From: Tribonema minus
Taxonomy: Eukaryota > Sar > Xanthophyceae > Tribonematales > Tribonemataceae
Assembly (NCBI GenBank): GCA_017506865.1
Contig: JAFCMP010000556.1
Span: 496,001 to 560,000, forward strand
DNA length: 64,000 bases
Direction: 5' to 3'
In this document: in pieces, positions 5,858 through 63,945 of the stretch
How the letters are laid out: every line of letters starts with the position of its first letter
How positions within the stretch are numbered: position 1 is the first letter of the stretch
Program-made: the position numbers and the translations under genes
Notes under the pieces: generated by a model
Database searches by the model: none
Seen by the model: the letters and a program-made list of their open reading frames with translations, nothing else
What the model was told of the DNA's origin: nothing

Positions 5858-8800
5858 TCACTGCCGCGGCGGCGGCGGCGGGGGCATGCCCGGCGGCGGC
5901 CGCGGCGGCATCTGCTGCGGCTGGCCGGGGGGCGGCGGCGGCATGCCGTAAGGGCGCGGAGGCGGCGCCATTGGCAGCGACGGCGGCCCAGGCGGCGGCG
6001 GCGGCAACCCTCCGCCGCGCGCCAGATGCGGCGGCGGCGGCGGCAGCGCGCCCGTGGCGCCGGGCGGCGTGGGCAGCGACGGCGGCGGCGGCGGCGGCGT
6101 CGCGCGCGGCGGCGGAGGCGGCAGCGACGGCATGTGCAGCGGCGGTGCCGGCGGCGATGCGCGCTGCTGCTGCTGCGGCGCGGGCGGCGGCGGCAGCGGC
6201 AGCGACGACGGCGGCTGCGGCGGCATGCCGTACAGCGCCGGCGGCGGCGGCGGCATGTGCATGCGCGGCGGCGCGGGCGCGCCCGGCGGCAGCGGCATGC
6301 CGGGCGGCATCTGCATCTGCATGAGCTGCAGGGGTAGCCGAGACAAAATACATACTATGAGAATGGTACGAGCTTTTGATTCGTTTCCACAAGGACTCTA
6401 AAATGCTTGCACACAGAAGTCATTTGACCACTGTGGATATGGTGGCAGTGTTTGATTCATGGCCAATAGCCGCAGCAGCGGCGACCACGATTATTGGTGG
6501 AAGGCTTTTGCGGCTCACCACACGTTGTCGTTTAGACTGCTACGAACTTTTGATTCGTTTCCATTAGATGTCGTCGTCTACCCCGCTTTGAGCGCGACGT
6601 ACACCTGACCTGCCACCGCACTAGGGGTCCTTCGCCACCTACCTCAGGAGGTACAAGGGAGGGCCTTCCTTGTCGTCGACAACAGGCGGTTTGCACAATG
6701 ATGGTCATTGCAGAGGTGCGACACTCTGCTGTCGTCGGTGACAGGCGCGCGAGCCCCCCCCCCTCCCCCCCTGCAGGGGTACTGTGTGAACAGTCGCGCG
6801 AGGGTGACTGGTGCGGTGTGCAACTTGAAACAGGGGTGCACAGGGGGCAATGCCACGGGGTATGTACATACATGCATGAACAGTGCTCAGTCGAGCGTAC
6901 TCCGAAATGGTGCTGTCTCATCAATCATGCCTCATTGCCTGATGTACTGCTGAGGGGAGGTGACGCTAACCTCAACTTCAAATCCAAGGAATCGTCTACG
7001 ACACGGAAGACCACTGTTAGAAGGTCAAGGAAGTGGGACCGCACAAAGACAGCGGGGGCTTCGCACCCGATGTCCATGCTTAAGCCGGCACTGATGGCGT
7101 GAAAAGCGAAGCTGACCAAATCGCAACTTCAAGCGCGCCATCGTACGTACTGCGGCGGCGGCGGCCCTGACCTCGGCTTCAACTTCAAGCGCATCAACGG
7201 ACAACGATAATCAAGAACGCCTCTCAGAAGGTCGAAGGAGTACCTGGTAAACGCGCACTGCGGCGGCGGCCCTGACCTCAGCTTCAACTTCAACCGCATC
7301 AACGGACAGATGCAATAATCAAGAACGCCGCTTAAAAGACTTGGGAGTACCTGGTAGCCCGCCGGGACCGCGTACTGCGGCGGCGGCGGCATCGCGTACA
7401 CCATCTGCGTCGGTGGGGGCTGGTACACCATGTAGGGGGGGACGGGGGGGGCGCCGTAGGCCTGCGGGGGGGGAGGGGGGGGGGACGCCCCCGGGTACGC
7501 CGGGGGCGGGGGGGCGGATGCGGGGGGCTCCGAGGCGGGGGGGGGAGGGGGCGGGCTGGGCGGCTTGGGCTGCCCCTGCACCTCCCCTTCCTGGGAAGCG
7601 AACCTGTTTGTTGGGGGGGCCCAAGGAGGGGGGGGGGGGGAGATTAGTGGTAGTGGTGGTGGGGCACTCAGCGCTGACAAAAACCCGCCAGCAGCGGCGC
7701 ACGTCAAGCAAAACGGCCGAGGGACAGGTGCAGTCGGCGGCTCTCCGTAGTTCCTTTCACAGTGCAGCTGTGCGGCGAGGCGTCATCGATGGTTTACGTG
7801 TACGATGGTGTCGGCGCGATTGTGTGCGGCCCGATACCTGTACGACAGCGTCCGCACAACTGCGCGCGTCTCGGCACCTGTAAGACAGTGTAATGACGCA
7901 GTTGCGTGCATCCTGGTACCTGTGCAACAGCACTGATGCAAGTGCACGGGCGTCTCGATACCCGTATGACAGCGTCAGCGTAGATTGCGTGCATCTCGTT
8001 CAGTTTACATGTGGCAGTTCTGTAGCCGCAAGTTCGTGACAAATATGAACATACTTACACGCTACTGAAGTAGTTGAAATACTTCATGTACAGCGTCACT
8101 GCGACTGCGCGCGTGTCTTGGTGCACACTCGTATACTTGTCAGCATCAGCTTCAGATGCGTGCGTCTCGGTCACGTGGCAATTCTGTAGACATAAGTTCC
8201 TTCCACAAAGTACAAGTGTATACATGCATATTACTGAAGTAGTTGAAAACAGTTCACGTAGTTGAAGCAAGACCGTGAGCAGTATGAGTCGTGGCAAAAT
8301 TGCTGCGCTGACATGGTGTGCGGCTTGAGAGGTGCAGCGAGTTGTTGGCGGCCGGAGGGCGCTGCATGAGGCTGCCGTGCCGCTCGCCGTGGCTGTCGCG
8401 CTAGAAAGTGTACGTGCGTACATATGTCGACGTATGCACTGACTTCAGATGTACAGAAGCGCCGTTTGGCGATGTCGTTCGGAGGCAACCGTCAGTGCAC
8501 TGCGGCACATTGTCACAAGGTCACATAGACTCTGATTGCAAGCTTGACACCAGCCATCTGGGCTGTTTTGCTCTGAGCACGACCTGCCTCCACAGAGTTG
8601 ACTGTGAACTAGAGGTACTAAACTCACATGGCAGCGTCTACAGGGGGCGGGCAGATGGACGATGATATAGTGGAGGGGGAGATGCCTGTTGGTGACGTCG
8701 TTTAGATGTGCTTGTCATTGAGACACTTTCAGATCGTCACATGATACGCATAGAGTTGTGCCATAAGCGTTGATAACGTCAACTGTGCTTTTTGGCGCCC

Positions 8801-11800
8801 TGAGCGAGGATTAATGACAAGTACTACACTCACATGGTATGCGGCTTGAGGCGCAGCGGGTTGTTGGCAGCCAGCAGACGCTCCGCGAGGCTGCCGTGCC
8901 TCTCGCCGTGGCTGTCGCGCTTGAACGCGTACTGCACCACGATCTGCCGGTTGCACAGGAACTGCCCGTTCATGCACTCGATGGCCAGGTCGCTGGCCTC
9001 GAATCTGGGGGGAAACAGGGGAAACCAGGGGGGGGAGGGGTCGGGGTATGTAAGTGTACAAACGCAATTCAAATGTGCAGGTTCATGCACTCGATGGCCA
9101 GGTCGCTGGCCTCGAATCTGGGGGGAAACAGGGGAAACGAGGGGGGGGGGGGGGGTCGGGTATGTAAGTATACAAATGCATTTTAATGTGCAGGTTCATG
9201 CACTCGATGGCCAGGCCGCTGGCCTCAATTCTGGGTGAACAAAGGGGGAGGAGGGGGATCAGGGTCTGTAAGTATAGATGTTTTATTGGCAGGTTTCAGG
9301 CCTCAAGTGTGTGTGTGTGTGTGCTGTGTGTGTTAGAATGGGGGGGGGGGGGGAGCAGCCGATCAACTTTAGGAAGAGGGCATGCTACGTCTTGAATGTG
9401 CAGCAAGCAGGGACATGCGGAGAGTGGGCATTGCGCTCTTTGTCGTTTTTGTGCCTGTGTGTCTGTGCGGGGGGGGGGGGCAATCAAATCAGGTCAGGGG
9501 CCGCGTTATACCACGCCTGCCACGGTTGGATGGGGTGCCCGCTACCTACTACTGCGTGTTGCAAGGTCGCAACTGGCTGACCGTACAGGGACCCCTGCAG
9601 CAACGCACAGCACGGCGCAGGTTGCTTGCCAGCACGACAGCAGCACGTCACTTGGTCAGGGGAGACAGGGAGCGGATGTGAGGGCTGCAGCACGCCTCAG
9701 CAGACCTTTGAGATTTGCAAACAAGCTGCGTCTCCAAGTCGTTGCATCCGGCCACCAGCACGAACCGTCGTACTTGAAGTAGCACAGAGTGCGCGGACCA
9801 TGCGTGTGGTGGATCGCTGCGATCTCAGCGCAATCGTCGCCGCCTGCGTGCACTGCACACGCGCTGCCGCATGATGTGGTGTCAGCATTTATTCTGTGCT
9901 GCAGTGCTCAGAGCCTGACCTGAGCGCTGCCGCCTCATTTGTCGTGGCAGACAAACCAGTAGCCCGTGCTGGCGCCTGTCTCCAGGCCATCGCAGCCCCA
10001 GCGCAGGCTTTAACATTGAAATACTTCCATCAGTGTCAACGCTTCTTGACTCGCAAACGGCGCTTTTGTCGCTACCATATCAGCGCCTTCCGCACCGTCT
10101 GGGTGCACATGCTGCGCTGCAGGACTGCAGTATGAGCGCTGCACCTCTCAGAGCGTATTGCGGGCACAAGTCACAGGGCACGGTGATGCCTGAGCAGCTG
10201 CCTCACTCACCCGTCGTAGCTGACAAAGCCGTAGCCCTTGCTGGTGCCCGTCTCAGGGTCGCGCATGACCTTGGGCGTGTTAGTGATGCATTGACTTCAA
10301 CTTCAACAACATTGAACACCAGACTCTAAAATGACTCGTCGGGGAAGTGGACGTGGGTTCATCAATGTGCGATCTCAGTATTCAACGCACCTGCCTCACC
10401 CGTCATAGCTGACAAAGCCGTAGCCCTTGCTGGCGCCCGTCTCCGGGTCGCGCATGACCTCAGGCGCGTTGTTGATGTTTTGGCTTCAACTTCAACTTCA
10501 ACAACACTCACAGTGCCTCGCCCGTCGTAGCTGACAGAGCCGTAGCCCTTGCTGGCACCCGTCTCCAGGTCGCGCATGACCTTGGGCGTGTTGGTGATCA
10601 TTGACTCCAACTTCAACTTGAACAACCAACATAACACTCAAACACCAGTGCCTCACCCGTCGTAGCTGACAAAGCCGTAGCCCTTGCTGGCGCCCGTCTC
10701 GGGGTCGCGCATGACCTTGGGCGTGTTGGTGATGAAGCCGAACGCGCTGAATGTGTCGTACAGGAGCTTCTCGTCCACCTGCGCGGTTGATTTTGAAAAG
10801 GAGGTCGTGATTGGCACGCATTGATGATACTTCTGATCAGGATAATTGCACTAAGGCAGAATCCGTTCTTGAATTCTATGGGAGTAATTGCGCTAATGCA
10901 AATCTGGCTTATGATAAGGGGTGGCAGTTCAGAGCCAGGTAAGCAGTGTGCGCGCGAGACGCGCGTGACTGTTGACAGCGAGCCTAGTCTATTGTCCGTC
11001 TGCACGCAGCGGTGCTGCGCGTGCGTAGCGACAGACGCGATAACCATCAGCGCGCGCGCGCTGAGAGAGCAAGATGAAGATCATGAAAAAACTTAAAAGT
11101 GCGGGGGGGGGAGGGTCCAGCCACCTACCCACATCGCCTGCTGGTCCCGCTGGCCGATCGACAGGTTGGCGCCGACAACATGCGCTTGCAGCCGGTGTTC
11201 ACACCAGACCCGATTGTAACCCTGGCCCTACCTTGGTTCTGGTCATCACGACATCAGTGGTGCAGAGAGTTGCGCAGCGCTTCAACCGCAGGACAGCAGG
11301 AGAGACACCTCAAGACCAATAAACAGTTCAGCTCTCTGCTCTTCGCCTTGCAGCGCGTGGTCACCAATCCTGAACCCCAACCTCAACCCTAGTCAGGCTC
11401 ACGACGCCACAATATGTTGAGCGTCAACTGCTAAACCAAAACACAGAACGGGGAGTGTCAACTTCATCACCAGTGGGAGCGTCACCTCCACGTCCAGCTG
11501 GCCGATGAACAGGTCAGCTCAACGCCTCCCGCCACAGCGTGTTCACCAGTCCTGAGCCCCAACCTCAACCCTAGTCAGGCATTCAGGACGCCACACAATG
11601 AGGAATGCCAACTTCAACACCAGTGCACAAAACGGGGGAGTGTCAACTTCAAGAACCAAAATGAGGAGCGTGAACTGCAACTGAAATGGGAGCGTCATCT
11701 CCGGGTCCAGCTGGCCGATGAACAGGTCAGCTCGACGCCTTCCGCCTTGCAGCGCGTGGTCACCAGTCCTGAACCCCAACCTCAACCCCAGTCAGGCATC

Positions 11801-14609
11801 AGGACACGCCACAAAACGGGGAGCGTCAACTGCAACTGAAATGGGAGCGTCACCTCCGGGTCCAGCTGGCCGATGAATAGATTGGCGCCCACGTCCTGCG
11901 CCTTGCGGTCGGAGCTGGCCTTGTTCACGCGCAGCGGCTTGCCAAACAGCTTCACCATGTTCAAAATCTGGCGGAGACAATCAGTCAGAGCAAAAATGCA
12001 GCAGGGACGCCTGGTCAGCAGGGCTGCTCTCAACAAGTAATTCATGGTTGCTGGTGGAAGGCATTTGCGGCATCCCACACCTTGTCACCTAGAACTCTAC
12101 GTTGTTTTGATTCATTCCCATAAACCACGCGCAGCGGCTTGCCAAACAGCTTCACCAAGGTCAAAATCTGGCAACAGCAGGAATGCAGGCGCAGGCGTAA
12201 GAGGGACGCTCGGTCAGCAGGCTGCTCGTTCAAACGCAACGAGCAAACTCATTTTGCTGAAGGACGAATGCTATGAACCACGCGCAGCAGCTTGCCAAAC
12301 AGCTTCACCATGTTCAGGATCTGGCAGGGCAGTCAGAACGCACACGCAGGTATTGACGCTCGGTCAGCAGGGTTGCTGTTTATGAATGCCACATTCTGCT
12401 GTTGATGCACAAGTGTTATGAATGAGCCGACAGTGGGGGGGCTGAGCAGCAAGGAATCAGGCCTTGAGGGCTGCAGGCCTAGGGCTAGGTTTGGGTTTGC
12501 TCACTGGTAGTCCTGACCCTAACCCTAAGCAAGTGATCACTTACGCCGTCATGTGCAACAATCGTTGCTCGCTGGCCCATCCGTTTTAGTCGGAAACGCT
12601 ATGCATGTTCACTGACCGGTCAGGTTGTAGTATGCAGGCAGTACAGTCTGAACTGCACGTGAACTGTGGCGGACTGACCTTGATGGCGTACTCGGCGTCC
12701 CCCTCGCTGCGGAACTCCACAAAGTACAAGGTGAACTGCACGTGAAATGTGGCGGTACAGTGAACTGACCTTGATGGCGTACTCGGCGTCCTCCTCGCTG
12801 CGGAACTCCACAAAGCCGTACCCCTGGTGCGTGTTGGTGACCTGTGCGCGTGGCGGTGCAACATGCAACAACCCTGTCAAAACAAAAGTTACACACTGAG
12901 CCGTGGACAAACAGTTACACAATGATAGGCCATTGGCAGACATTGTTGGTGACCTGCTTGCGTGGCGGTTCAACATGCGACCCCGTCAAAACAACAGTTA
13001 CATGCTGAGCCGTGGACAAAACAGGTGTGCGCTGATGGGCCATTTGGCAGATATTGTACTGAATGGTTACTCAGCAAGCCAAGAAGGAAACAGGACTTGT
13101 TTCAATGGAGATGGGATGATGTCTGCTCAGTGCGGTGGTGAGTCCGATGAAGCTGAAGCCTGGGATAATCACGTCAAGGCTTTACTTATTGTTGAAGACC
13201 CCCAATACTGCGACACAATATGCGCAAGCCTTTTCAAGAAACGGCACGCGCTGACAAACCATGATGCCGGTGCGAGGTGCCTGCCAGTTGGCCACGTCAC
13301 TTAGCGCGCAACTGTGTGATAACACTGACCCTAACCCTAACCCTAAGTGCCATGACGTAGCTGCCCTGCAACAGACGCGACAACTGAGGATCATCGGCGC
13401 TTGCTGGCGCCTCAAAGCAGAAAGCGATGGGAGTGCATGCGCGCACTCTGCGTCCACCGCTGTGCATGATGGGGCTAGCTGGCCGCATGCTTGCAGCCGC
13501 GCTGTGCGTAGGCAACGTCGTGTCGACGCGTAGCACTCGTGAGGTATGCAGCTCCCGAAATCACATTAAGGTTCAAGCTCCACAATCACTGCAATGAAAC
13601 GTTGCCTGCACAGCAGAAAGCGGCCTTCTCTGCCGAGTGCATCACCATCCTGACCCCGCCTGGTCCTTATGAAAGCAGTGCTCAGTCATGAGAAAACCTA
13701 GGGTTAGGGTTAGCCGCTGCCCGCACGGACCAAAGAACATGCCGCCGTGTCTCCACCGCTAACGGTGCTATCCCTGCTGTCAGGATAGGCAAGCGTCAGC
13801 GTTCTCCTGGCCCTAACCCTAATCCTGACCCACAATGGCACGTCACTGTCGCACCGCGTCGTTGCATGCTTCCGCTAAGAGGCAGGCACGGCCTTACGAG
13901 CACGCAGAAAGCTTGGCTCCATTCTCAAAGTAGTGTAAGGGTCAGAGTCAGGTGCTTGAACGTAGACGTGCAAGCTGGGGGCTGCAATGGTGCCACTGGT
14001 GTGCATGGGGGCCGGAAGCCGAGTGAGGCATGTAGGCACAGCCACTGGTGGGTGCTGATCGGCCGGCAACCAAGCGCACAGTGTGGCGGCATCGGTTTTT
14101 TGCTGAGCATGCAGCGTGCATTGATGCATTCCTTCGTAAAGTGTACTGTGGCAACCAACTTCCATGGCACCCAATCTTCAATTCCACATTCACAGCTGCC
14201 CCTCCAGCTTTTGGCTATGCTTTACAGCAGCGACACCTACCGATAGTGCCGGCTCGCTGCAGGCGTAAATCGTTACTTCATAACCTCCTGCAGTGTCTTC
14301 CCCTTCACTCCCTAAACAATTGCACTTCACTCACGCCTGAGTATCTGCTTGTAAGCGTTGCGCTGTGCCGAACATTGTCCGGATAGAAGTGCGTCGCCAA
14401 CCCCGGCCGTCAACACTGCTGTTTGCGACCACGTTTCAATGCTAGCCTTGCCATCGAATCACGCTTACCTTGTCCTTCGGCATGTGCACGTTGACTACTG
14501 GCCCAGCCTGTATCATCAGCTCCCACAGGAGCTCCTCCGTGGCAGCCTCATCCAGGTTGCCGCAGTAGCAGGTGGCATCCTGATTGCGCTGCTCTATGGC
14601 GGCACTCAT
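5858..14609 (-). CDS. SF3B4: Splicing factor 3B subunit 4 (SF3B4 / SAP49)
   Basis: Core subunit of the U2 snRNP SF3b complex, which contacts pre-mRNA near the branch site. Exons on the minus strand: 14609-14469, 12841-12770, 11967-11854, 10778-10657, 9004-8834, 7603-7351, 6325-5858. They join in frame to 446 aa plus TAG. The N-terminus ([17 protein letters not shown]) opens RRM1, with RNP1 QGYGFVEF at residues 53-60. RRM2 has RNP2 NLFIGQL (about 100-106) and RNP1 KGYGFVSY (141-148), then NGQFLCNR and [18 protein letters not shown], as in animal SF3B4. Residues 208-446 are the family's proline-, glycine- and methionine-rich tail, ending [13 protein letters not shown]. The length is close to human SF3B4. 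Exons 2-6 are flanked by diverged partial copies of themselves. The start is the first ATG of the conserved N-terminus. Confidence 0.94.
6400..6565 (+). mobile_element. Dispersed ~170 bp repeat, copy 1
   Basis: Member of an eight-copy family in this window. The conserved core runs from a GCTTGCACACAGAAG-like start through GCGACCACGGTTATTGGTGG to an end reading CTTTTGATTCGTTTCCAT. A second short end fragment lies at 6370-6390. No ORF or clear terminal inverted repeat was found, so it is probably a non-autonomous element (MITE- or SINE-like). Confidence 0.6.
7150..7290 (-). repeat. Downstream partial copies of SF3B4 exon 6
   Basis: Two decayed copies of the last part of exon 6 (7603-7351) and its donor lie 3' of it on the minus strand, at about 7230-7275 and 7150-7190. 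Both are recognisable from the repeated Pro-coding segment and the splice-site context. Confidence 0.5.
8307..8401 (-). repeat. Downstream copy of SF3B4 exon 5
   Basis: A diverged copy of the last ~95 bp of exon 5 (9004-8834), including the segment for [11 protein letters not shown] and the sequence around the donor. It lies about 450 bp beyond the real exon on the minus strand. Confidence 0.7.
8785..8826 (+). repeat. 3'-tail repeat family, copy 2 (short)
   Basis: Matches the last ~40 bp of the tail family (GGCGCCCTGAGCGAGGATTAA and flanks). It lies beside the donor of SF3B4 exon 5. Confidence 0.5.
9078..9240 (-). repeat. Two upstream copies of SF3B4 exon 5 start
   Basis: On the minus strand, 9123-9080 and 9236-9194 repeat the acceptor and the first ~40 bp of exon 5 (segment for [12 protein letters not shown]). 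The G-rich flank that forms the poly-C pyrimidine tract is also repeated. Each copy stops after the initial codons. Confidence 0.8.
10203..10578 (-). repeat. Three downstream copies of SF3B4 exon 4 end
   Basis: Copies at about 10578-10509, 10465-10391 and 10270-10205 (minus strand) repeat the segment for [24 protein letters not shown] and the GTGAG donor of exon 4 (10778-10657). Spacing is about 120-190 bp. The copies have substitutions, and a TTCAACTTCAACTT-type motif sits between units. Confidence 0.85.
11130..11740 (-). repeat. Downstream copies of SF3B4 exon 3 end
   Basis: Segments near 11697-11733 and 11468-11512, and a weaker one near 11140-11175, repeat the end of exon 3 (the segment for FIGQLDPE) with its donor. 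The intervening intron sequence is also duplicated. Confidence 0.7.
12044..12122 (+). mobile_element. Dispersed ~170 bp repeat, copy 2 (truncated)
   Basis: Holds only the distal half of the family consensus, from GGTTGCTGGTGGAAGG to a diverged TTTTGATTCATTCCCAT end. It abuts an upstream copy of SF3B4 exon 3. Confidence 0.5.
12122..12330 (-). repeat. Two upstream copies of SF3B4 exon 3 start
   Basis: About 12165-12125 and 12325-12280 on the minus strand repeat the acceptor (CCAG) and the segment for [14 protein letters not shown] of exon 3 (11967-11854). Confidence 0.8.
12673..12728 (-). repeat. Downstream copy of SF3B4 exon 2 end
   Basis: Repeats the segment for [14 protein letters not shown] with the GTCAGT donor of exon 2 (12841-12770), with one E-to-G change. 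The acceptor side of exon 2 is also echoed upstream at about 12980-12940. Confidence 0.8.
13326..13347. repeat. Interstitial telomere-like array in SF3B4 intron 1
   Basis: About three CCCTAA units in the first SF3B4 intron. Degenerate units also occur at 13703-13718 and 13809-13825. Confidence 0.7.
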
Positions 14610-18300: not shown

Positions 18301-21300
18301 CGGCATGAACAGGCGCCTCACTTAGCAGACACGTCACCCCCCCTGTTTGCCACTTCTGTTGGGTGAAACCCCCCCCCCCCCCCCCCCTTCAGGCCAACGA
18401 CATGGATGTGCGCCTGAAGTCGGCGTCGCAGGTCCGCAGCTTCGGCGTCACGGCGCGCGTCTCAAGTGCACAAAACGCAGCAATCACACGTTGCCGTTGC
18501 GCTGGTACAGGGCCTCGCCCAGCACCGCTCCTACTAGCAGACCCCCCCCCCCCCATTATCTGTCTCAGGCCGACGACATGGACGCGCGCCTCAGGGCGGC
18601 ATCGCAGGACCGCAGTACAGAATTGCTGCGCCAGCCTCAAGTGCACAGAAACACTGCCATCACACGTTAGCCTAGCCCAGCACCGCTCCTAGCAGAAACC
18701 TCACACTCCCCCCCCTGCCCCCCCCTCTTTATCGGTCTCAGGCCGACGACGTGGATGCACGCCTGAAGGCCGCGTCGCAGAACCCCAGTGCATTGTCGTT
18801 GCGCCAGCCTCAAGTGCGCAACACACTGCCATCACCCATCACATGTTGTCGTTGCATCCTCATCCTCCCCCCCCCCCCCCCCCCCCCCGCCCCCCACCTT
18901 TGTCGACTGATATACAACCGTCAGGCCGACGACATGGACGCGCGCCTGAAGGCGGCGTCGCAGGACCGCAGCTTCGGCGTCGCGGCGCGCGGCGGCCGCG
19001 GCGGCAGCGCGGGCGAGCTCGACTTCTCCAAGTACGGCTTTGACAGCGACGAGAAGCTCGACCTCACCAACTACCGCGTGGACCCCCGTGCGGGCTGCTG
19101 CCCCGGCTGCGGCGTCCAGTTCCAGGTACGAGTCTGAGTCTGAGTTCGCAGGGACAAAGTTACTACATGCAATGTGCATGGACTTCGTTAGAAGTGCGCT
19201 GTCTAGTTTTAGGTACGAGACTGACTCTGAGTCAGAGTCGCTTGTAACGACATCATTACAGTAATAGTGAGGGTATGAGAAGGGGGGCTGCTGCCTCGGC
19301 TGCGACGTCCAGTTCCAGGTACGAGCCTGGGTCTGAGTCAGAGTTACCAGGGACAAACTCATTACAGTAGCATTTGGAGTGCGGCGTGAAGGTTCGGGTG
19401 CGCGTCGGCGTGCAGAGTCAGCAACGAGTCGCTCAACCTGCCTACCGTCTGTACTTATTGCAGCACGTCTCACTCATCAAGCCACCGCAGGCGAAGGGCG
19501 GACCCGGCGCGCCCGTCTTCGTGTGCTGAGCACTGCTTTTGCTCAACCTCTTTCGAAGAAATGAGTTTCCAGGAGTGGATTGCAGTAAAAGTACATGGCC
19601 TTCTACCTGTGCCTGTTACACTTGTCTGCCGCTGCGCACTGCCCCCGTCGTAGCCGAAGGACCCTGGCGTGCCCGGCCTGATGCCAAGCGCTGCTCTGCT
19701 CATCCTCTTTCGAAGCAGTATATTATGCCTGTGCCTGTTGCACTTGTCACTCACAAAGCAAGCTTTATCACTGCGCGCTGCCCCCGCAGCCGAAGGACCC
19801 CGGCGCACCCGGCTTCCTGCCCGTCGAGAAGCTGGAGGAGCTGCTGGCGCAGCGAGCGGTATGTATGAGCGAATGCAGTACACATGAGGGTACATCTCGT
19901 GTACACAAGAGTACATGTACTTTTTATTAATTCTCGCTCAGGGCGCGAAAAAGCCCATGTGCTTCTTTTCGTGAACTGTACGTGTACAGAGATGTACTGT
20001 TCTTGTGAAGTATATGACACTGCCCCTCGAAAAGCTGGAGGAGCTGCTGGCACAGCGAGCGGTACGTACGAGTACAGCGCAGTGCACATGAGGGTACATC
20101 TAGTGTACATGAGAGTACATGTACTGTACATGATGCTGCCCGGAGGAGCTGCTGGCACAGCGAGTGGTGTGTATGAGTGAATGCAGTACACGCGAGGGTA
20201 CATCTGGTGTTCACACAGTCACATGTAGATTCTGGTTGCGAGTCCATGGACATCCACCATCTGGGCTTCTACGCGCCTGACTTGAACTGTTCATCATGAA
20301 AATGATGACGCGCAAGCCCCCGGATGCGGTTGCGCAGACGCCACTCTGTTAGCGCACTCGCGCGTGGGTTAGGGTTAGAGTTTGTTGAAGTGTGAGATGG
20401 TCCGATGGTCCAACGCCTAGTGCATACCCTAGGGGTAGGGCACGGTCCAGTTCTAGGGGTTTCTCCAGGAAGTTCTGGCAAGTTCTTGAAGTTCTGATGC
20501 CCTACGGAACGGAAGGTTCCCGCTGGCCCTTTCGTGTCAGCGACAAAGTCACTTGTTCTTCTCCCAGCCCGAGGCGCCTGCGGGCAGCCTGCGGCATGGC
20601 TGCTCTCCCCTCTCTTCTGCGTACCCCCGGTTTTCCAACGGGTGGGTACGTGCGCTTTCTGTCTGAGTGCCCCCCCCCCCCCCCCCCCCCCCGCTTACTC
20701 CCCTTCCTCGCTGTTCGTGTGCGTTGCGCAGGCCGACCTGGAGCGGCGCCAGGCAGAGAGTGGCTACGTCGAGATCGAGAAGATGGCCACTGAGGTACGC
20801 ATGTACCCCAGTCAATTTACTCCAACTTTGCTTGTTGAAAAAAGGACATTTCATCATCTGCCCAGATGCAGGGTTCCGCGCTGACGGCTTCGCGAGTCGA
20901 TGAGTCGAAAGCATGGATTTCGTGCATGGCTGACTGGTTTCTTTTCTTCTGAAGTGCCAACAACTGGAACTTATTAACTTCACCTCTCAAAGCGGCCATA
21001 CCTCGCCGATGCCCTGTCTGCGGAGGTGGCAGTGATGAGAGCGCACGGTTGCAAGACCAGAGCCCGCTGTCGATCGCCGCGCTGTCGGGGGAGCTGCTAT
21101 GGCGGCGCGCTTGCGCTTGAGGTGCGAAAAAAAAAAAAACACTTGAATTTCATCTTGGTGCGCAGCTGCGAACTTGGATGTACCCGTCGTATGTGTCAAG
21201 ACAGCGTTGGAGGTGAGGGTGCGCAAGACGCCCACCTCTTTGTAGCCATCAAATGCACTTCGATCGCGCGCTTCACATCTGCAAGTTCAGGGCACTCTGC

Positions 21301-28120: not shown

Positions 28121-28186
<66 letters not shown>

Positions 28187-32830: not shown

Positions 32831-33033
32831 GCCTATACCTACATACCCCCCCCCCCCCGGCCGCCCCCGAGCGCGGTGCGCAGCGCGCGCGCGTGCTGCC
32901 GTGAGGCGTCAGCACGGCTGCAGCGGGCGCGCGCGCTTGCGTCAGCGGCGCATGCGTCATGCGCAGCGCGCGTGCCCGTGTGGGCGCGTACCGCGCTGTA
33001 GTTTCCCGCCCTGCCGGCGCGTTTACAGCGAGC

Positions 33034-33061
33034 GGGGGGGGGGGGGGGGGGGGGGGGGGGG
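33034..33061. repeat. Long G homopolymer
   Basis: About 28 consecutive G just downstream of the GTPase stop codon. If transcribed from the minus strand it would be a C tract like those before splice acceptors. It is also a potential G-quadruplex former. Confidence 0.85.
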
Positions 33062-42681: not shown

Positions 42682-42716
<35 letters not shown>

Positions 42717-43603: not shown

Positions 43604-43638
<35 letters not shown>

Positions 43639-49600: not shown

Positions 49601-52600
49601 GCAAGCTTCTTAGCGTTCGAGTCTGAGTCTGCTCCCGCACGGCTGCTTTGTTGCCACCGCCCTTGCGATGGGTCGTCTTGAGAATAGAATAAAGGTTGAG
49701 GTCAGAATAAAGGTCAAGGTCAGGTTCGCCGGTGCTTAAGCCGCCATGACATCCTAGCCCCCACTGCAAGTCGGGGTTAAGGTTAGGGTTAGGGTTAGAA
49801 GCGCCGCACGGCGCTCATTTTGCCTGCGGACGCTACTGCATCGTTGTTGTGACCTCAGTTGCTGAGCAGCTCAGGGCAACGCCTACGCGCCTGTCGCTGT
49901 GCTGCCTGCTGGGGCTGGTCCTCGTTGCAATTCCAACCCTAACCCTGATTCAGGGACTTTGGGTTAGGACAAGGGTTAAGCTTAGGGTTCAGACAACCGC
50001 TTCGCGCACTTGCTTTGCCTGTAACTCTACTGCACCGTCATCGTAAACGCAGGTGATGAGGAGCTGATGGCGACGTCAACGCGGCTGTCGCTGCGCTGCC
50101 CGCTGGGCCTGGTCCCCATTGCAATTCTAACCCTAACCCTAATCCAGCACTTTGGGTTAGGCTTAGGGTCACGTTTTACGCCATTGCTGCATGCGCTGAT
50201 TTTGCGTCTGCATCGTCATTATGAATGCAGGCGATGAGGAGCTGATGGCGACGTCTACGCGCCTGTCGCTGCGCTGCCCGCTGGGGCTGGTCCCCATTGC
50301 GGTGCCGGCGCGCGGGCGCGGCTGCGCGCACCTCCAGTGCTTCGACATGGCGACGTTCCTCAGCTTCAACGAGAAGAACAGGTGAGCGAGCGTCATACTT
50401 CAAGTTTTACTTCAAATGATGAACCGCGGCTGCGCGCACCTCCAGTGCTTCGACATGGCGACATTCCTCAGCTTCAACGAGAAGAACAGGTGAGAGAGCG
50501 CGCGTGATATGAACGAAAACGCCAACAAAACCTCCACATAAAGAGTAAGGGTGAAAATTCAGTGCGGTCGATTTTGCTCCGTCGCGCACCAGCGCGCTGT
50601 CGCGCAAGAGGGAGTTGTACTTCAAATTTTACTTCAAGTGATGGAGCGCAGCTGCGCGCCCCGCCAGTGCTTCGACACGGCGACGTTTCTCAGCTTCAAC
50701 GATAAGAACAGGTGAGGGCGCATTGCGCGTCACGGCGCCATAGCACATGACTCTGTGGCGAAAGTGGCGCGCTCTCGCGGGAGCGCGGACAGAGGTCGGC
50801 AGAAGCGCGTGTGCGCAGAGTATCTGACCAGGAAAAAAAAGCTTGATTGTAGAAATGATTCAAAAATCTGCAAAAAGCAGCAAGAGCGCCGTGGCGCCGC
50901 CGCGGCACGCACCCACGGCGAAGTTGGCGCGCTGTCGGTGACAAGAGCTATCGATAAGGAGAGCTGGCGAGAACGCGCGTGCGCGTGTGCGTCGTCTGGT
51001 TCTTCCGATGCGGCGCACGAGTAACCCTAACCCTAACCCTAAGGAGATGTCTGAAGAGGTACCCGAGATGCCATTTGGCGGCGGCGGCGTTTGAGTGGTT
51101 GCCGTTGATACGCTTTCAGACTGTCATACGACATGTAGGTTCCGTACAGCAAGCTTCAAGTTAGATGCCATTCATCTGGGCTTTTTCGCGCCCTAAAGCG
51201 AGAATTAATCAAAAGTACATGTAGAAGTGGGCGTGCAGAACAGAACATTGCCTATCGCTACCTGTGTGGTCAGGGCCAGGGTCAGGGTTAGCGCCGTTCT
51301 TCATGTTATTCTTCAACTTGTACTTCAAGTGCTGATTGTGCGCCTGAGGTTCCAGGAACATAGTTGGCCGCGCGTGCGCTACAACACCGATCATTCACTC
51401 ATACACTGGTGGAAAACATGTCTGTTTCACTGCATTCACGAATCTACGCCTAATCGCCGCAGCGGCGCCGTGCGGCGGCAAAGCACGCACAAACACCAAT
51501 CATTCACTTGTTCACTGATGAAATCCACATCTAATTCACTGATGAATACATGAATTTACTTGTCGCTGCAGCGGTGCCGCGTGGCGGTGCAGCGTGTGCA
51601 ACACGCCCATCGACCCGGAGGACATGGTCATGGACGAAAGTCATGTCTGATTCACTGATGAATTCATGAATCCATGTCTCTTTTCCACCGCAGCGGCGCC
51701 GCATGGCGGTGCAGCGTGTGCAACACGCCCATCGACCCGGATGACATGGTCACCGGTTGAGGTCTGATTCACTGATGAATTCACGAATTCATGTCTCCGT
51801 CGCTGCAGCGGCGCCGCGTGGCGGTGCAGCGTGTGCAACACGCCCATCGACCCAGAAGACATGGTCGTGGACGAGTATTTGTGGCAGGTGCTGGGCGACC
51901 TCGGCGCGCGCGTCAGCGAAGTTGAAGATATTCAAATTCACAGGTGACTCCCCCGCATCACATGCAAAATTTCAATAAACCTTTATGGCAGGCGCAATAA
52001 TGATGGCAGAGGTGCTGGGCGACCTCGGCATGCGCGTCAGCGAAGTTGAAGATATACAAATTCACAGGTGACTCCCCCGCCCTGTTACTGAAGAAAAAAG
52101 TAAAGCTGGAAGCTATAGAATTTGTTCACAAACCAACGCGTTTTCAGGATGTACAAATAGCAGAAGAAAAAAAACTTTCACAACCTACTCGTAATTGTTC
52201 GTTTCTCGAGTAGCTACGGCAGAGGTGCTGGGCGACCTACACGCGCGCGTCAGCGAAGTTGAAGACATTCATCAAATTCACAGGTGACTCCCCCGTTTTG
52301 TGCTAAAAATAGTAAAGATTGAAGCATAGGATTTATACAACAAGAGTGTTCGGGATGTGCAAACAGCAGAAGAACCGATACTCTCACCAAACTTTAAAAA
52401 AATGTTTCTTCCTTCTTAAGTAAGTATGGCGGGTGCTGAGCGACCTCGGCGCGTGCACGTCAGCAAAGTTGAAGATGTTCAACTGCACAGGCGACTCCCC
52501 CGCCCTGTCGCATCGAATGCGTGCACGCATCATCAGAGCTTCATTGCAGGCGCACGTATTTGTGGCTGGGCGATGTCGCCGTGCGCGTCAGCAGTGTTGA

Positions 52601-55600
52601 AGTCAACTCAACTTCACAGGTAACTCGCCCGCCCTAAAGCACGTAATGCGTTACCCATTAGAGTAAGTATGACACGTGCCTGGCGACCGTCAGCGGTCTT
52701 GAAGACCACCCAACTTCGCTGGTGACTCCCCCGCCCTGTCGCAGTTTCATGCGCACGCGACTTGCCTCATCAGAGCTACTTTTAAGTTCCGCGCAATCAT
52801 GCGCGTCTGTCACGATTCCCCGTGCGGGTCACGCGCCGGCACACGCGCTTCGTGGGAGACCGGCGCGCTGCGCCGCACGGCACGCGCTGCAAGTTCAACA
52901 CCCGCATGTAAACACCCGCATGTAAACACCCGCATGTACGTACCTGCAAAGGTCAAAGTTCGCGCGCTACACTACAAGGTGCACGATAAGCCACGAGACT
53001 CCACGGATCAAGATTCAAGTTGAAGTTGACTTACCTGCAATGCCCACCTCACACTCCGGCTGCCACACACTGCGCGCCGGCACCCGCAGCAACGGTCGGT
53101 GGGAACCGATCATGGAGAGCAGCGGCGGCGGCGGCGGCGGCAGCAGCGCGCGCTCCGCGCGGCGCGCCTCCGCCGCCGCCAGCGCCGCCGCCGCCGGCGA
53201 CGGCGACTCCAAGCCGCCTGCCGACGCCGCCGCTGCTGCCGCTGCGCAGGCTGTCATACCGAGCGGTAGTATCGGTTTCAACCAGGAGATCAGTCTCGTT
53301 GATGGCCATGAAGCGGAGGGCGCAGCGGCGGCGGCGGCAGCGGCGCCGGCGCCGGCGGCGGTGGGCGGCGCGGTGGTGGATCTGTCGCTGGACAGCGATG
53401 AGGAGGATGACGGCGGCGGCGGTGGCGGCGGCGGCGGCGGCGCGCATGCCATGTGAGTGCCGCTCATGGCCGCTGCGGAGCGCTGCTATGTGCAGCAAAC
53501 CCTAACCCTAACCCCAGTTCCTGACACCAGACGTCGAGAAACGTGCAGAACGTTTTGGGCCGGCTCGCCTGCCGCATGCGTGCCTACCAGGTTTTTCCTG
53601 GAGACTTGATTGAAGCGGTGGGGGAGAATTCTGTTTCGTGCAGGGTGGTGGCCATCGCGACACCGCGCGCGCGGAGCGCTTTCACGCATGGCTGGCCGGT
53701 GCGTCTCTGCACACGTATCAACTTCAACTTGAGGTTTGATCGTCTGGAGGCACGCGCTGCGCAGACCGCGTCAGCGCTCAGCGCGGACAAAGCCTTCAGC
53801 GCGCGGGGCTTCACGTGTACTGATTCGGGGGGTTGGTCCACGCACACCTCATGGCATTAGGGTAACGGTTAGGGTTAGGGTCATCGTCCCTGCCCGTCTC
53901 GACAACCGGTGGCCTGTAGTTTCCACCCTAGGTCCGCTTTCGTGCATGCACACCACGCGCGGCACCGTGGCCAGTGGCGCCCTGGGTCTGGTGAACTTCA
54001 CCCGCGGTAAGCGCAAGCACAGGGCAGTACAGCAGTAGCTCAGCCTCGAGTCCACCATTCAGCGCAACTCTGCAACCGCAGCGCGCAATTGAACTGCAAC
54101 CCGAGTCTGTCCACAATCAAGCACTACTACTTGTCAGCCCGTGCATGACGGCCGTGTGATACAGCAAATGCGCGCGCACGGGCTCCGCAACAGTGCTGGG
54201 CTGCACAGCTCGACAGCGCGCGCCGCAGCGCTGTTGCCGCACTTGCGAGCAGACTTCAAGAGTGAAGTTCAGTGTGATCTTCAGAGCCCTGCCGCTTTCG
54301 CACGTGAGCGATGCTGGCGGCGACAGCGCGCAGCCGCGGCCGCGCAGAAGCGGCGGCGCAGCAGCGGCGATGCGCGCCGCAAGTGCTGCCACCGCCCTAT
54401 CGAGCAGCCTTCAGTGCTGAGGTTTGGTGTGATCTTCTGAGCCCTGCCGCTTTCGCGCGTGAGCGATGCGAGCGGCAACGGCGCGCAGCCGCGGCGTCTC
54501 AGCAGCGACGGCAGCAGTGGCGCAGCGGTGCTGCGGGGGGGCGGCAGCAGGGCGCGGCAGCAGCGCCGCAGTGAGCGGCCGTCAGAGGGCGGCTGCGGCA
54601 GCGGAGGTGCTCATGTCCCGCTGTCGGCGGCGGGGCGGCGCGGTGCGCAGCGCAGGACGAGCGTGCCGGATGGATGATAGCTGGCACGTTTCAGCAGGGA
54701 TTCCGAGGGATAGGGTTAGGGTTAGGGTTAAGGTTAGGGTTAGGGTTAGGGGTAGGGTTAGGCGGCAGATGTCACGCGTACCTCGCCGTTCTTTTTGAAA
54801 GTGTTTTGTCGGTATTAGGTGTTGAAAGGGTCACGTTCGTTCAAGAACAAATCGTCGTGCTTCTCATGTTTCTCAAACATCGCGGAAAGAAAGTATCCTC
54901 TAAGAAAACACGTAGGCCCTTACCGGTATCTGTAGCTAGGGCACTTAGGTTCCAGCATTACTGCTAGGGCTAGTGTGCTCACGGACAACATCACGCTCGC
55001 GCGACGCAGGATCCCCCCTCCGGCGGCGGCGGCTGCAGCAGCGCTCATCCCCCCCGCGCAGCTCCACCAACCGCAGTACTTGCCACCGCTGCACCAGCAG
55101 CAGCCGCAGCAGCAGCAGCAGCACCAGCACCACCACGCGGTGCAGGCGGCGCGGTTCCTGCACAGCGCTCAGTATCCTCAGGGCGACGCGGCAGCGGCGG
55201 CGGCGGCGCCGGCGCAGCAGTCGGCCTTCACGCCGTGGGCAATGATGCGCTCGTCAGAGCAGCAGCAGCAGCTGCAGCAGCAGCAGCAGCTGCAGCAGCA
55301 GCAGCAGCACGCAGCCAAGCGGCACAAGGCGGGGGGGTCGCCGCCGCACGGCAGCGCTCAGGTACCTAACCCTAACCCTAGCGCTAAGCCTTGCAACCCT
55401 AACCCTAACCCTAACCCAATCCTAAACCTAAGTGTGTTGTAACGCTGAGATCTGCCGCTCACTGATCTAGCCTGCTGTTTTTCCCGTTCCGTATCGAGTG
55501 GATGATCGGCTCTGAACATGCTGCAGAGTATCATGCAAATGCCCGTGGCGACGCGGTAATGGGCAGAGCAAGGTATGTAGGTATGCGTCTTGGTGGCCAC

Positions 55601-61500: not shown

Positions 61501-63493
61501 CCCTGCCGCAGCTGGCTCTCGCAAGACACCTCACGCTCCTCTGTAACACTGCTTCAAGTATTTATTCAAGTTTTCATTGAAGTAGCAATGCACCCGCCGC
61601 AGCTGGCTCTCGTGAGGCACCTCCGGCTCTACTGCGGGTTTCAACTCCTCTTCGCGTTGTTGTTGTCGCAGCAGGGTGGAGAAGCGGTCCAACGCCATCC
61701 ACCCCAGCGCGCACACCAATCAACCTCTTTGAGTACTACTTGAAGTAGTAGAGCACCCCGCAGCTGCTGGCTATCTAAAGGCACCTCACGCTCTGCGCTC
61801 GCTTTGAATCCTTTCCTTTTTGTCGTCGCAAAAGACCCAACTACTTCAAGTAGTACTTGACCTAGTGATGCACACCGCCGCGGCTGGCGCTCGCAAGACA
61901 CCTCACAACCTACTTCGACTCCTCTTCTCTCTGTCGTTGTGCAACAGGGTGGAGAAGCGGTCCAACACCATCCACCCCAGCGCGCACACCGTGGAGGACA
62001 GGGGCAAGGTCCTCATGCGGCCCATGGGGCGCTGCGCGAGCATGGCGACGCAGGAGGCGTTACGCAAGGTATGTAGGTATTACGTGCCCTGTACCCTAAC
62101 CCCCAACCCCAACCCCACCCCTATGCCCCATACCCCACGCACGTTGACTGTCACGGTGTGAGTGAGGCCCAGAGGGCGCTGCGCGAGCATGGCGACGCAG
62201 GAGGTGTTGCGCAAGGTGCGTAGGTATTGCGCGCCCTGTTACCTACCCTGATCCTAACCGTACCCGGAACCCAACCCTATACCCCCTAACCCACGCATGC
62301 CGACTGTCGAGGTACTACATGATGCAGCCAACGGGGCGATGCACGAGCATGGCGACGCAGGAGGCTTTAGGCAAAATATGCAGGTATTGCACGCCAGTAT
62401 CCATACCCCACGTCTGTCCTAAATGGTGAGGTGCTAATCAGCGGGGCGCTGCGCAAGGATGGCGACGCAGGAGGCGTTGCGCAGGGTATGTAGGTATCGC
62501 GCGGCCTGCCTTCAGCCCCCTACCCCCGAACTCCCGCCGTCGACCGTCGCGACTGCTTAGAAGCCGCTTGTCAATCGCCGCAACTGCTTCCATGCCCCCC
62601 CCCCCCCTCCCCCCCCGCTTCCTCCCCCCCCCCTTCCTCGGTCAACCATCGCAATCGCTTACACGCCGCTTGCCCCCATCACAGGTGACGCAGGAGACCC
62701 CCGGGGGCCCCTAGACCCCCCCCCCCCCCCGGCCTCCTTTGGTCGACCATCGCAACAGCTTACAAATCGTTTGCTTCCTCCTGCCCCCTCCCGACCCGGC
62801 CTCCATCGGTCGATCGTCGCAAATCTGTCGATCGTCGCAACTTGTTTTTTCTTGCACAAGGCGTCCCCCCCCACCCCCCCCCCTTGCAGGTGACGCCCGC
62901 AGGCTACTCCAGTACCAGCCATACATACGTATGTGTTATCTTCACCCCCCTCCCCCCCTCCCCCGCCTCCCTCGGTCGACGACCATTGCGACTGCTTACA
63001 AGGCCTCCCCCCCCCCCCCCCCCCAATCATTGCAGGTGACGCAGGAACCGCCCGCAGGCCCAGCGGAGGCGCTCGCGGCGAGCGTCATCAACGCTTGCCT
63101 CCCTCAATCGACCATCGCAACCGTTACCAGCCGCTCCTCTCCCCCCCCCCCCCCGACCTTTGCACCCGCTCAAGGCCTCTGCCCGCCCCCCCTCCTTCGC
63201 CACCCCCCCTACCCCCCTCCCGCCCCCCCCGGTTGACGACTATTGCGATTGCTTACAAGGCCTCCCCCCCCCATTACAGGTGACGCAGGAGACACCCGCA
63301 GGCCCAGCGGAGGCGCTCGCGGCGAGCGTCATCAACGCGTGCAAGAACCCGCTCGGCAGCGTGGAGTACCTGTCCTCGCACGCGTTCGCGGCGGACGTGC
63401 TTACGCTGTGCCAGCACGTGCGCGCGCAGTTCGAGACGGAGACGCGCTGCCTGTTCATGCAGTCGCCCGTGTACGTCTTCGGCGACATACACG
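58593..63493 (+). CDS. PPP-family Ser/Thr protein phosphatase, 5' part (partial, runs off right edge)
   Basis: The best exons are 60602-60717, 61948-62068 and 63280-63493, which join in frame. The first encodes a coiled-coil-like segment (REYELQCLRIQNDALQKEA). The second includes RSNTIHPSAHTVEDRGK. The third leads through LTLCQHVRAQFETETRCLF to [11 protein letters not shown], the first metal-binding signature of PPP phosphatases, where Asp and His bind the catalytic metals. The rest of the catalytic domain lies beyond the window. Likely first exons are 58593-58670 (MPAEQEQEMTDYGLTG start, GTGAGC donor) and 58739-58815 (glutamine run). The link from these to 60602 needs one more exon, perhaps within 58870-59040, and is uncertain. 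The N-terminal coiled coil before a PPP domain resembles divergent PP1-like enzymes of protists. Confidence 0.7.
59946..60059 (-). mobile_element. Dispersed ~170 bp repeat, copy 8
   Basis: Minus-strand copy of about 114 bp with AGATCGTAGAGCTCTATGTG and TTCCACCAGTAACCGCAGTT. It lies in an intron of the phosphatase gene. Confidence 0.6.
61665..62500 (+). repeat. Copies flanking the RSNTIHPSAHTVEDRGK exon
   Basis: An upstream copy near 61672 repeats the acceptor and the VEKRSNAIHPSAHT segment. Downstream copies near 62165, 62325 and 62440 repeat the segment for GRCASMATQEALRK and the GTATGT or GTGCGT donor. The real exon is 61948-62068. Confidence 0.88.
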
Positions 63494-63945
63494 GTGAGTT
63501 TGCCGTCCAAACCTTCAACTGTTGCAACTTGAGGTTTATGAGTTGAAGTTTGATGCTGAAGTTTATGTGTTGAACTTGAAGCTTCAACTTGAAGTCTTCA
63601 TGAAGTGTGCCAGCACGTGCGCGCGCAGTTCGAGACGGAGACGCGCTGCCTGTTCATGCAGTTGCCGGTGTACGTCTTCGGCGACATACACGGTGAGTTT
63701 GCCGCGTTCAACAGATAGAACATCATATTTTGAACTGTTCGAAAAATGAAGTTGGAAAGTTGAAGTTTTGCAAGTTGAAGTTTTGTAAGTTGAAGTTTTG
63801 CGAGTTGAAGTTTGTGAGTCAAAGTTTTGGTTGACGTCTTGATGGTGATGGAAATGTGCCAAGCACGTGCGCGCGCAGTTCGAGTCGGAGATGCGCTGCC
63901 TGTTCATGCAGTCGCCCGTGTACGTCTTCGGCGACGTACATGGTG
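62680..63945 (+). repeat. Copies flanking the GDIHG exon
   Basis: Upstream copies near 62684, 62888 and 63036 carry poly-C tracts, an AG acceptor and the VTQETPAGPAEAL segment in varying length. Downstream copies at 63607-63694 and 63855-63944 repeat the segment for [20 protein letters not shown] and FGDIHG with the GTGAG donor. The real exon is 63280-63493. The last copy reads FGDVHG. Confidence 0.92.

What the first reader, a model, noticed from the sequence alone, without database searches (positions are those of the whole stretch)
7150..63945. Exon echoes: nearly every exon is flanked by polarised partial copies of itself
In all four recognisable multi-exon genes, on both strands, copies upstream of an exon contain the acceptor plus the exon start, and copies downstream contain the exon end plus the donor. 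Copies are tandem, 100-200 bp apart, diverged and often broken by stops. More than 20 exons show this; I saw no full-length exon duplicate. The regular polarity suggests that repeated duplication across splice junctions is a genome-wide process here, building introns from their own exon edges. I know of no named system with this pattern. It might be recurrent template switching or local DNA repair seeded at intron-exon borders, or it might be selected as decoy splice sites.
Basis: partly seen in the sequence, partly recalled or inferred. Interest (0 to 1): 0.9.

Follow-up and report, generated by a model that had tools for sequence, protein, structure and literature searches.

The report
Half-copies of exons inside neighbouring introns
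In the yellow-green alga Tribonema minus many exons have decaying partial copies of their own ends, splice site included, lying in the introns beside them, apparently left by short tandem duplications across splice junctions that the splicing machinery has to ignore.

Summary
The window lies in the Tribonema minus genome (Xanthophyceae). Of 23 curated exons in five genes, 19 carry edge-touching partial copies. Acceptor copies lie upstream (26 of 26), donor copies downstream (31 of 31); none is full-length. In 37 exons of eight kinesin/actin-type genes elsewhere the polarity is again exact, but only 12 (edge-touching) to 16 (any copy) exons show it; two genes have none.

The copies are best read as short tandem duplications (spacing median about 174 bp) across one splice junction, reaching 21-99 nt into the exon, then decaying neutrally. 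Polarity itself needs no special mechanism: only this shape leaves the mRNA unchanged.

What needs explaining is that junction-spanning duplications exceed intron-only ones 4.4-fold after calibrating for detectability (2.8-fold in the independent genes), and that none reaches past 100 nt or 0.65 of an exon. One control, exon-masked arrays, shows no junction excess. I favour a duplication bias at exon-intron borders plus tolerance by exon-definition splicing; about half the decoy sites score as well as the real ones. Introners, classical intron gain and selection for decoys fit poorly. Ten literature searches (capped lists, judged by title and abstract start) listed no report of this pattern.

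The parts
14469..14609 (-). SF3B4 exon 1 (no copies found)
   Evidence: no hit
12770..12841 (-). SF3B4 exon 2
12640..12724 (-). donor-side copy of SF3B4 exon 2 (exon end + donor)
11854..11967 (-). SF3B4 exon 3
12120..12377 (-). acceptor-side copies of SF3B4 exon 3 (2 copies, acceptor + first 42 nt)
11316..11750 (-). donor-side copies of SF3B4 exon 3
10657..10778 (-). SF3B4 exon 4
10206..10625 (-). donor-side copies of SF3B4 exon 4 (3 copies; a fourth, weaker one lies further downstream)
8834..9004 (-). SF3B4 exon 5
9081..9295 (-). acceptor-side copies of SF3B4 exon 5 (2 copies, unit 113 bp, clean tandem)
8308..8413 (-). donor-side copy of SF3B4 exon 5
7351..7603 (-). SF3B4 exon 6
7155..7270 (-). 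donor-side repeat of SF3B4 exon 6
18925..19125 (+). NOA1/YqeH exon 1
18368..18788 (+). acceptor-side copies of NOA1 exon 1 (3)
19285..19366 (+). donor-side copy of NOA1 exon 1
19790..19858 (+). NOA1 exon 2
20020..20227 (+). donor-side copies of NOA1 exon 2 (2)
20732..20794 (+). NOA1 exon 3 (no copies found)
22204..22349 (+). NOA1 exon 4
21543..22108 (+). acceptor-side copies of NOA1 exon 4 (3)
22474..22778 (+). donor-side copies of NOA1 exon 4
23227..23395 (+). NOA1 exon 5
22878..23132 (+). acceptor-side copies of NOA1 exon 5 (2)
23429..23808 (+). donor-side copies of NOA1 exon 5 (3)
24243..24395 (+). NOA1 exon 6
24066..24128 (+). acceptor-side copy of NOA1 exon 6
24523..24931 (+). donor-side copies of NOA1 exon 6
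26067..26224 (+). NOA1 exon 7
25218..25950 (+). acceptor-side copies of NOA1 exon 7 (4)
27604..27730 (+). NOA1 exon 8
27395..27475 (+). acceptor-side copy of NOA1 exon 8
27912..27998 (+). donor-side copy of NOA1 exon 8
29206..29343 (+). NOA1 exon 9
28363..29122 (+). acceptor-side copies of NOA1 exon 9 (5)
29463..29732 (+). donor-side copies of NOA1 exon 9 (2; first is 100% over 50 nt)
30283..30384 (+). NOA1 exon 10
30556..31000 (+). donor-side copies of NOA1 exon 10 (2)
31540..31668 (+). NOA1 exon 11
31105..31431 (+). acceptor-side copies of NOA1 exon 11 (3)
31784..32523 (+). donor-side copies of NOA1 exon 11 (5)
39627..39791 (+). gene U exon 1
39321..39426 (+). acceptor-side copy of U exon 1
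39865..40365 (+). donor-side copies of U exon 1 (3)
40826..40912 (+). gene U exon 2 (weak donor-side match only)
50231..50381 (+). PIAS/SIZ-type SUMO E3 exon
49836..50122 (+). acceptor-side copies of the first PIAS exon (2)
50425..50730 (+). donor-side copies of the first PIAS exon (2)
51809..51943 (+). next exon of the same gene, assigned from reading frame and splice sites
51492..51751 (+). acceptor-side copies of the second PIAS exon
52010..52635 (+). donor-side copies of the second PIAS exon (4-5)
61948..62068 (+). PPP-type phosphatase gene, exon
61565..61717 (+). acceptor-side copy of the first PPP exon
62163..62526 (+). donor-side copies of the first PPP exon (3)
63280..63493 (+). PPP-type phosphatase gene, next exon (reads ...VYVFGDIH; motif recalled)
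62594..63098 (+). acceptor-side copies of the second PPP exon
63606..63998 (+). donor-side copies of the second PPP exon (2)

Best explanation
Exon-intron borders of Tribonema minus genes are recurrently hit by short direct tandem duplications, mostly 90-300 bp per unit, with one end 20-100 nt inside an exon and the other in the adjacent intron. If the duplicated segment spans only the acceptor, the new copy lies upstream as acceptor + exon start; if it spans only the donor, it lies downstream as exon end + donor. Either way an intact exon remains with its own splice sites innermost, so the mRNA is unchanged as long as the spliceosome pairs the innermost acceptor and donor (exon definition). 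Duplications of a whole exon, or inside one, change the protein and are presumably purged. The copies then decay neutrally and some are re-amplified into arrays. Shown: anatomy, polarity, absence of full copies, near-neutral decay, excess over intron-only duplications. Inferred: purge by selection, exon-definition splicing, and a mutational preference for borders (for example breaks near splice junctions repaired by fill-in or template switching).
For: Tandem units with homologous spacers are visible in full in several arrays. First-copy spacing median 173.5, IQR 135-202, 50 of 51 used. Exact polarity: 26/26 and 31/31 in the window, 7/7 and 10/10 in eight independent genes. No full-length copy. 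Arrays hold a junction in 34 of 38 (null 17.3) and 19 of 26 (null 10.5), 0 of 5000 rotations each. Repeat coverage falls from 0.67 within 50 bp of a junction to 0.24 at 601-900 bp, and is 0.12 in bases more than 1.5 kb outside the curated exons. Calibrated on the copies' own intron sides: 25 junction events against 21 intron-only clusters, where 0.21 of events are expected at junctions, P about 1e-6; young class 4 against 2, P 0.02. Exon pieces within 1.5 kb: 104 direct, 2 inverted. Neutral decay: codon positions, star-like divergence. 47 of 96 copies score at least as well as the real splice site, yet use of the copy's site would break the frame or add a stop in 75 of 76 window copies, so position rather than strength should decide. 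The annotated NOA1 protein contains the residues of all 11 curated exons in order, apart from the first three residues.
Against: With exons masked, remaining self-similar arrays do not abut junctions more than chance (18 of 36 vs 17.0; 11 of 19 vs 8.5). This is a low-power test, since about half the arrays abut by chance, but it gives the idea no support. In the independent genes, junctions lie in arrays no more often than chance (19 of 74 vs 15.3, 869 of 5000), and the calibrated excess there is modest (9 of 19, P 0.02). Only 16 of 51 real-to-copy spacers are clearly homologous by global alignment, although 72 of 95 intron sides beat 20 shuffles, so simple tandem duplication is directly visible in a minority. 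Acceptor copies score above neutral expectation (7.39 vs 5.84), which plain decay does not explain. No RNA evidence for exon definition was available. No common breakpoint motif or microhomology was established.
Confidence: 0.6

Rival explanations
1. Random short tandem duplications everywhere in genes, with no targeting. Selection removes those that alter the mRNA, and copies containing conserved exon sequence simply stay recognisable longer than intron-only copies.
For: Explains polarity and absence of full copies without a special mechanism. Exon-masked arrays show no junction preference. Divergence ratios (exon part 6.6%, homologous spacers 14.8%) show that exon-containing copies are indeed detectable longer.
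Against: After calibrating detectability on the copies' own intron sides, intron-only events are still about 4.4 times too rare (21 found, about 92 expected). The uniform model predicts 35% of copies reaching more than 100 nt into the exon; 0 of 51 do, although alignment truncation may shorten measured extents.
Confidence: 0.27
2. Selection keeps the copies as decoy splice sites or regulatory pseudo-sites.
For: Splice dinucleotides are retained in 48 of 54 donor and 39 of 42 acceptor copies, and acceptor copies score above neutral expectation (7.39 vs 5.84).
Against: Retention is close to neutral expectation (45.4 and 36.5), donor copies score slightly below it (5.81 vs 6.61), codon positions 1 and 2 mismatch equally, and copies diverge independently. 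Two of eight independent genes have no copies.
Confidence: 0.06
3. A mobile element or introner inserts next to splice sites and carries or duplicates exon edges.
For: (TTGAAG)n-type sequence lies within 45 nt of 17 of 52 donor-side and 7 of 36 acceptor-side joints against about 10% background.
Against: The 51 spacers share nothing but simple repeats apart from one 41-nt dispersed piece. Exon pieces are nearly always direct (104 vs 2 inverted).
Confidence: 0.04
4. RNA-templated copying: nascent pre-mRNA around a splice site is copied back into the locus.
For: Copies start and stop close to the junction (exon side median 49 nt; ungapped intron-side match fades by about 20-30 nt).
Against: Adjacency, near-constant orientation and homologous spacers in the visible cases indicate DNA-level tandem duplication.
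Confidence: 0.03

Closest known systems
[quoted passage not shown] Hellsten et al. 2011, known to me from passages of PMC4974935, and of the review PMC3443670)
   Same: Short tandem duplication involving exon sequence and splice signals; mRNA can remain unchanged.
   Different: There the duplicated exonic AGGT makes a new intron, so intron ends resemble the exon across the intron. Here an existing junction is duplicated outward, the intron is lengthened, and copies match the adjacent exon edge with its own splice site.
Repair-mediated duplication of proximal DNA (Pace et al. 2009, PMC2671141; passages)
   Same: Local copies of about 150 bp, including occasional splice-site segments, attributed to double-strand-break repair.
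   Different: That study set aside cases within 50 bp to exclude tandem copies, and in human 4 of 824 donors were partial exon/intron. Here copies are tandem, direct and concentrated at junctions.
Introners (Amoebophrya PMC7789003; PNAS 2022 PMC9860276; search listings only)
   Same: Intron sequence spread over many genes of a protist.
   Different: No shared element across the 51 spacers examined, apart from one 41-nt piece in two of them.
Tandem exon duplication / mutually exclusive exons (recalled)
   Same: Exon copies in adjacent introns.
   Different: No full-length copy; copies lack one splice site and would break the frame if used (75 of 76).

Membership tests
[quoted passage not shown]
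   Among edge-touching pieces near each exon, all carry that exon's own near edge: 33 of 33 upstream and 43 of 43 downstream; 9 of 9 and 11 of 11 in independent genes. Searches reached about 1.9 kb around each exon; pieces further away were not sought.
[quoted passage not shown]
   No genomic relative held; one scan of genome contigs found none.
Introners / transposon-derived introns | Near-identical sequence shared by many introns | tested here: not met
   51 spacers: 12 cross pairs, 11 simple repeats, 1 dispersed 41-nt piece.
Tandem exon duplication | Full exon with both splice sites | tested here: not met
   0 of 88 exon pieces in the window contain both ends; maximum extent 0.64 of an exon over both gene sets.
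Repair- or microhomology-mediated tandem duplication | Direct adjacent copies of a contiguous segment | tested here: met
   Visible in full in several of ten arrays printed; clear spacer homology in 16 of 51 first copies.
Repair- or microhomology-mediated tandem duplication | Microhomology or filler at the joint | tested here: inconclusive
   By eye a few shared bases at SF3B4 exon 5 and possible filler at L035 exon 5; (TTGAAG)n near 24 of 88 joints; not measured systematically.
Exon-definition splicing | Innermost acceptor-donor pair is used despite equally strong outer sites | tested here: inconclusive
   The annotated protein follows the innermost pairs for NOA1 and 47 of 96 outer sites score at least as well; no RNA data.

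The most novel reading that the evidence does not exclude
Splice junctions (or exon ends) in Tribonema minus are hot spots of a continuing tandem-duplication process, physically tied to exon-intron borders, that steadily builds introns out of their own exon edges. The resulting thicket of equally strong decoy sites is survivable only because splicing in this alga is strictly exon-defined.
Probability: 0.45. Interest if true: 0.85.

Novelty: new variant of a known kind. Interest (0 to 1): 0.7.

Why it matters
It offers a dated record of how introns lengthen and turn over, with the conserved exon as a built-in reference for the age of each copy. It is also a natural test of exon definition: dozens of half-exon decoys with intact splice sites, placed on one side only. 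If the junction excess holds genome-wide, it would tie a mutational process to splice junctions or exon chromatin, which bears directly on the open question of where intron sequence comes from.

Tried and rejected
Exon-centre breakpoint idea (nucleosome dyad or Okazaki terminus): in the window acceptor and donor copies seemed to meet mid-exon, but in long exons (198-439 nt) the extents stay at 34-87 nt, so a fixed reach of about 20-100 nt fits better. It may still matter in short exons (acceptor extents below a truncated null, donor extents not, P 0.13).

A naive age-matched count gave 28 young junction copies against 2 young intron-only clusters. I do not rely on it: the intron sides of the same young copies pass the young intron-only test in only 4 of 28 cases, so the calibrated figures are used instead.

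Gene conversion from exon to copies was considered because exon parts looked too well kept. The 2:1 divergence ratio in homologous units fits plain neutral decay, so it is not needed. Copies being translated was rejected. Telomere-like TTAGGG is not concentrated at junctions. Pfam scans of frames over 17.5-37 kb gave one weak hit. Rfam (gathering cut-offs) and tRNA scans of the window were empty. A genome-contig scan found no relative. Early taxonomic guesses (haptophyte, dictyochophyte) were wrong; the organism was settled.

Rows dropped before counts: low-complexity hits were filtered out, but not. One search leaves out SF3B4 exon 6 and gene U exon 2. One search leaves out one spacing (521 bp) and one pair. 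In one search the PPP translation was printed in the wrong frame; frame 1 is the one used for the copies.
Full report
WHAT AND WHERE. The window is bases 496001-560000 of contig C553 of a 158.18-Mb, 554-contig assembly. My manually joined NOA1/YqeH protein is 100% identical over 99% of its length to a protein named Tribonema minus whose contig is 569,972 bases long, the length of C553. T. minus is a xanthophyte of the PX clade. The same protein (read) contains the residues of all 11 exons I chose, in order, except the first three. SF3B4 was defined from homology and gives one open frame over six exons; the SUMO E3 comes from PDB sequence matches to one exon; the phosphatase is named from its reading frame and motif (recalled); gene U is unidentified.

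CHECK OF THE OBSERVATION. In 64 kb, 124 of 186 direct repeat pairs lie within 500 bp but only 2 of 77 inverted pairs. I curated 23 GT-AG exons. With 120-nt junction queries, 15 of 22 acceptors and 16 of 23 donors have copies spanning the junction by at least 12 nt on both sides; all 26 acceptor copies are upstream and all 31 donor copies downstream. With exon-only queries, 33 of 36 upstream pieces contain the exon start and none the end; 43 of 52 other pieces contain the exon end and none the start; the remaining 3 and 9 touch neither edge, most of the 9 being low-complexity matches of SF3B4 exon 6. No copy contains a whole exon. Nineteen of 23 exons have an edge-touching copy.

INDEPENDENT GENES. 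I defined 37 exons with HMM segments plus a splice-site matrix trained on the window and repeated the test. Sixteen of 37 exons have some copy; junction copies are 7 of 7 upstream for acceptors and 10 of 10 downstream for donors; edge-touching pieces are 9 and 11 with none on the wrong side, and 4 further pieces touch neither edge. Twelve exons have an edge-touching copy. Two genes have none. The process is therefore not confined to the window, but 'nearly every exon' describes the window, not the genome.

STRUCTURE OF THE COPIES. First copies lie 91-521 bp from the original, median 173.5, IQR 135-202 without the one at 521. They reach 21-99 nt into the exon and never beyond 0.64 of it; X-drop extents have a median of 49 nt, while uniform placement would give a median of 81 and put 35% beyond 100 nt. 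Uniform placement would also give about 0.14 whole-exon events per junction event, about 7 for 51; none was seen. Several arrays read as plain tandem units with homologous spacers. Ungapped identity on the intron side fades within 20-30 nt, but 72 of 95 intron sides still align better than the best of 20 shuffles, consistent with fast intron turnover by indels; only 16 of 51 real-to-copy spacers are clearly homologous end to end. Copies are direct: 104 direct against 2 inverted exon pieces within 1.5 kb.

DECAY. Copy-to-exon mismatches are 6.8, 6.7 and 11.2% at codon positions 1, 2 and 3 in 76 copies, as expected if the copy is free and the exon changes mainly at synonymous sites. Copy-to-copy divergence of exon parts (13.2%, 44 pairs) is about twice real-to-copy divergence (7.8%, 51 pairs); in the 16 real-to-copy pairs with homologous spacers, exon parts differ by 6.6% and spacers by 14.8%. 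Splice dinucleotides survive in 48 of 54 donor and 39 of 42 acceptor copies against 45.4 and 36.5 expected by neutral decay; mean site scores are 5.81 against 6.61 expected for donors and 7.39 against 5.84 for acceptors, so acceptor copies are somewhat better kept than my neutral model; 25 and 22 copies score at least as high as the real site. Using the copy's site instead of the real one would shift the frame or add a stop in 75 of 76 window copies.

IS THERE TARGETING? Polarity alone says nothing: among tandem duplications only those spanning a single junction, or lying wholly in an intron, leave the mRNA intact, and the former must look like this. The question is whether junction-spanning events exceed intron-only ones. 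Arrays hold a junction in 34 of 38 (null 17.3 +/- 2.3) and 19 of 26 (null 10.5 +/- 2.1) cases, 0 of 5000 rotations each. Repeat coverage declines with distance from junctions (0.67 to 0.24). But copies containing conserved exon remain visible longer. I therefore asked how many junction copies would be seen from their intron side alone: 25 of 51. Uniform placement over the same genes predicts 0.213 of tolerated events at junctions, hence about 92 intron-only clusters; 21 were found, and by eye a few of those lie beside junction arrays. That is a 4.4-fold excess (P about 1e-6) pooled, 5.4-fold in the window and 2.8-fold (P 0.02) in the independent genes; the young class alone is small (4 against 2, P 0.02). 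Against this, masking exons leaves arrays that abut junctions no more than chance (18 of 36 vs 17.0; 11 of 19 vs 8.5), and in the independent genes the share of junctions lying in arrays (19 of 74) is not above chance (15.3). I read this as moderate support for a border preference.

HOW IT MOST LIKELY WORKS. Short tandem duplications arise with a preference for exon-intron borders. Those covering a whole exon or lying inside one are presumably purged. The rest leave an intact exon whose own splice sites are innermost. Outer decoys are half-exons: they have an acceptor without a donor, or the reverse. A spliceosome that defines exons across the exon would ignore them; one that pairs sites across the shortest intron would choose the outermost decoys and ruin the mRNA. 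That the annotated NOA1 protein follows the innermost pairs through 11 exons fits exon definition; RNA evidence is needed. The cause of the border preference is unknown. Breaks or nicks near splice junctions repaired by fill-in or template switching are possible; simple (TTGAAG)n sequence near 24 of 88 joints, against about 10% background, may mark break-prone intron sites or filler.

KNOWN SYSTEMS. Intron gain by tandem duplication (passages of PMC4974935, and PMC3443670) predicts a different arrangement, not seen here. Introners fit poorly because the 51 spacers share almost no sequence. Repair-mediated proximal duplication in primates (PMC2671141, passages) is the nearest process but sets tandem copies aside and rarely touches exon-intron borders (4 partial exon/intron of 824 donors). 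My ten literature searches returned lists, most of them capped, which I judged by title and start of abstract; none listed a paper describing this pattern. Six papers name T. minus together with introns; I read passages of one (PMC12459048) and saw only the listing of the other five. The T. minus genome paper was not found in the library, so its text was not seen.

LIMITS. Thirteen genes, 60 exons; exon borders in the eight independent genes are predicted, not observed; no RNA, no second strain, no relative genome. Assembly artefact is unlikely, since copies differ from each other by about 13% and mostly have different spacers, but reads were not available.

Noticed in passing
window about 2370, 8800, 19920 and (inverted) 51190: A short dispersed repeat with a stretch like 'ttattaattctcgctcagggcgcgaaaaagccc' recurs at least four times, read by eye; one 41-nt part is the only non-simple sequence shared between spacers of two genes.
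   Followed up: partly
window introns; loci L003-L018: Short interstitial TTAGGG/CCCTAA runs are strongly over-represented (9-mers about 180-510 times a Markov expectation in about 217 kb sampled) and occur at about 1-3 per kb in introns against 0.1 per kb in exons, without concentration at junctions.
   Followed up: partly
L012 (contig C300) and L013 (contig C250): Two small contigs show about 19-20 TTGAAG/CTTCAA hexamers per kb and 78-84% local repeat coverage; a 9-mer of the same motif is about 80-fold over expectation in the sampled sequence, these contigs included.
   Followed up: partly
window 302-546 (repeat array 109-562): A 24-bp GC-rich minisatellite outside any curated gene.
   Followed up: no
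window 41469-42570 and 46742-47699: Further dense local repeat arrays in stretches where I curated no exon; they may mark unrecognised exons.
   Followed up: no
G000:C80:58875-98754: Three pairs of actin-family fragments with the same two profile stretches (about 125-187 and 268-350), two on one strand and one on the other, suggesting repeated actin-like genes or pseudogenes.
   Followed up: no
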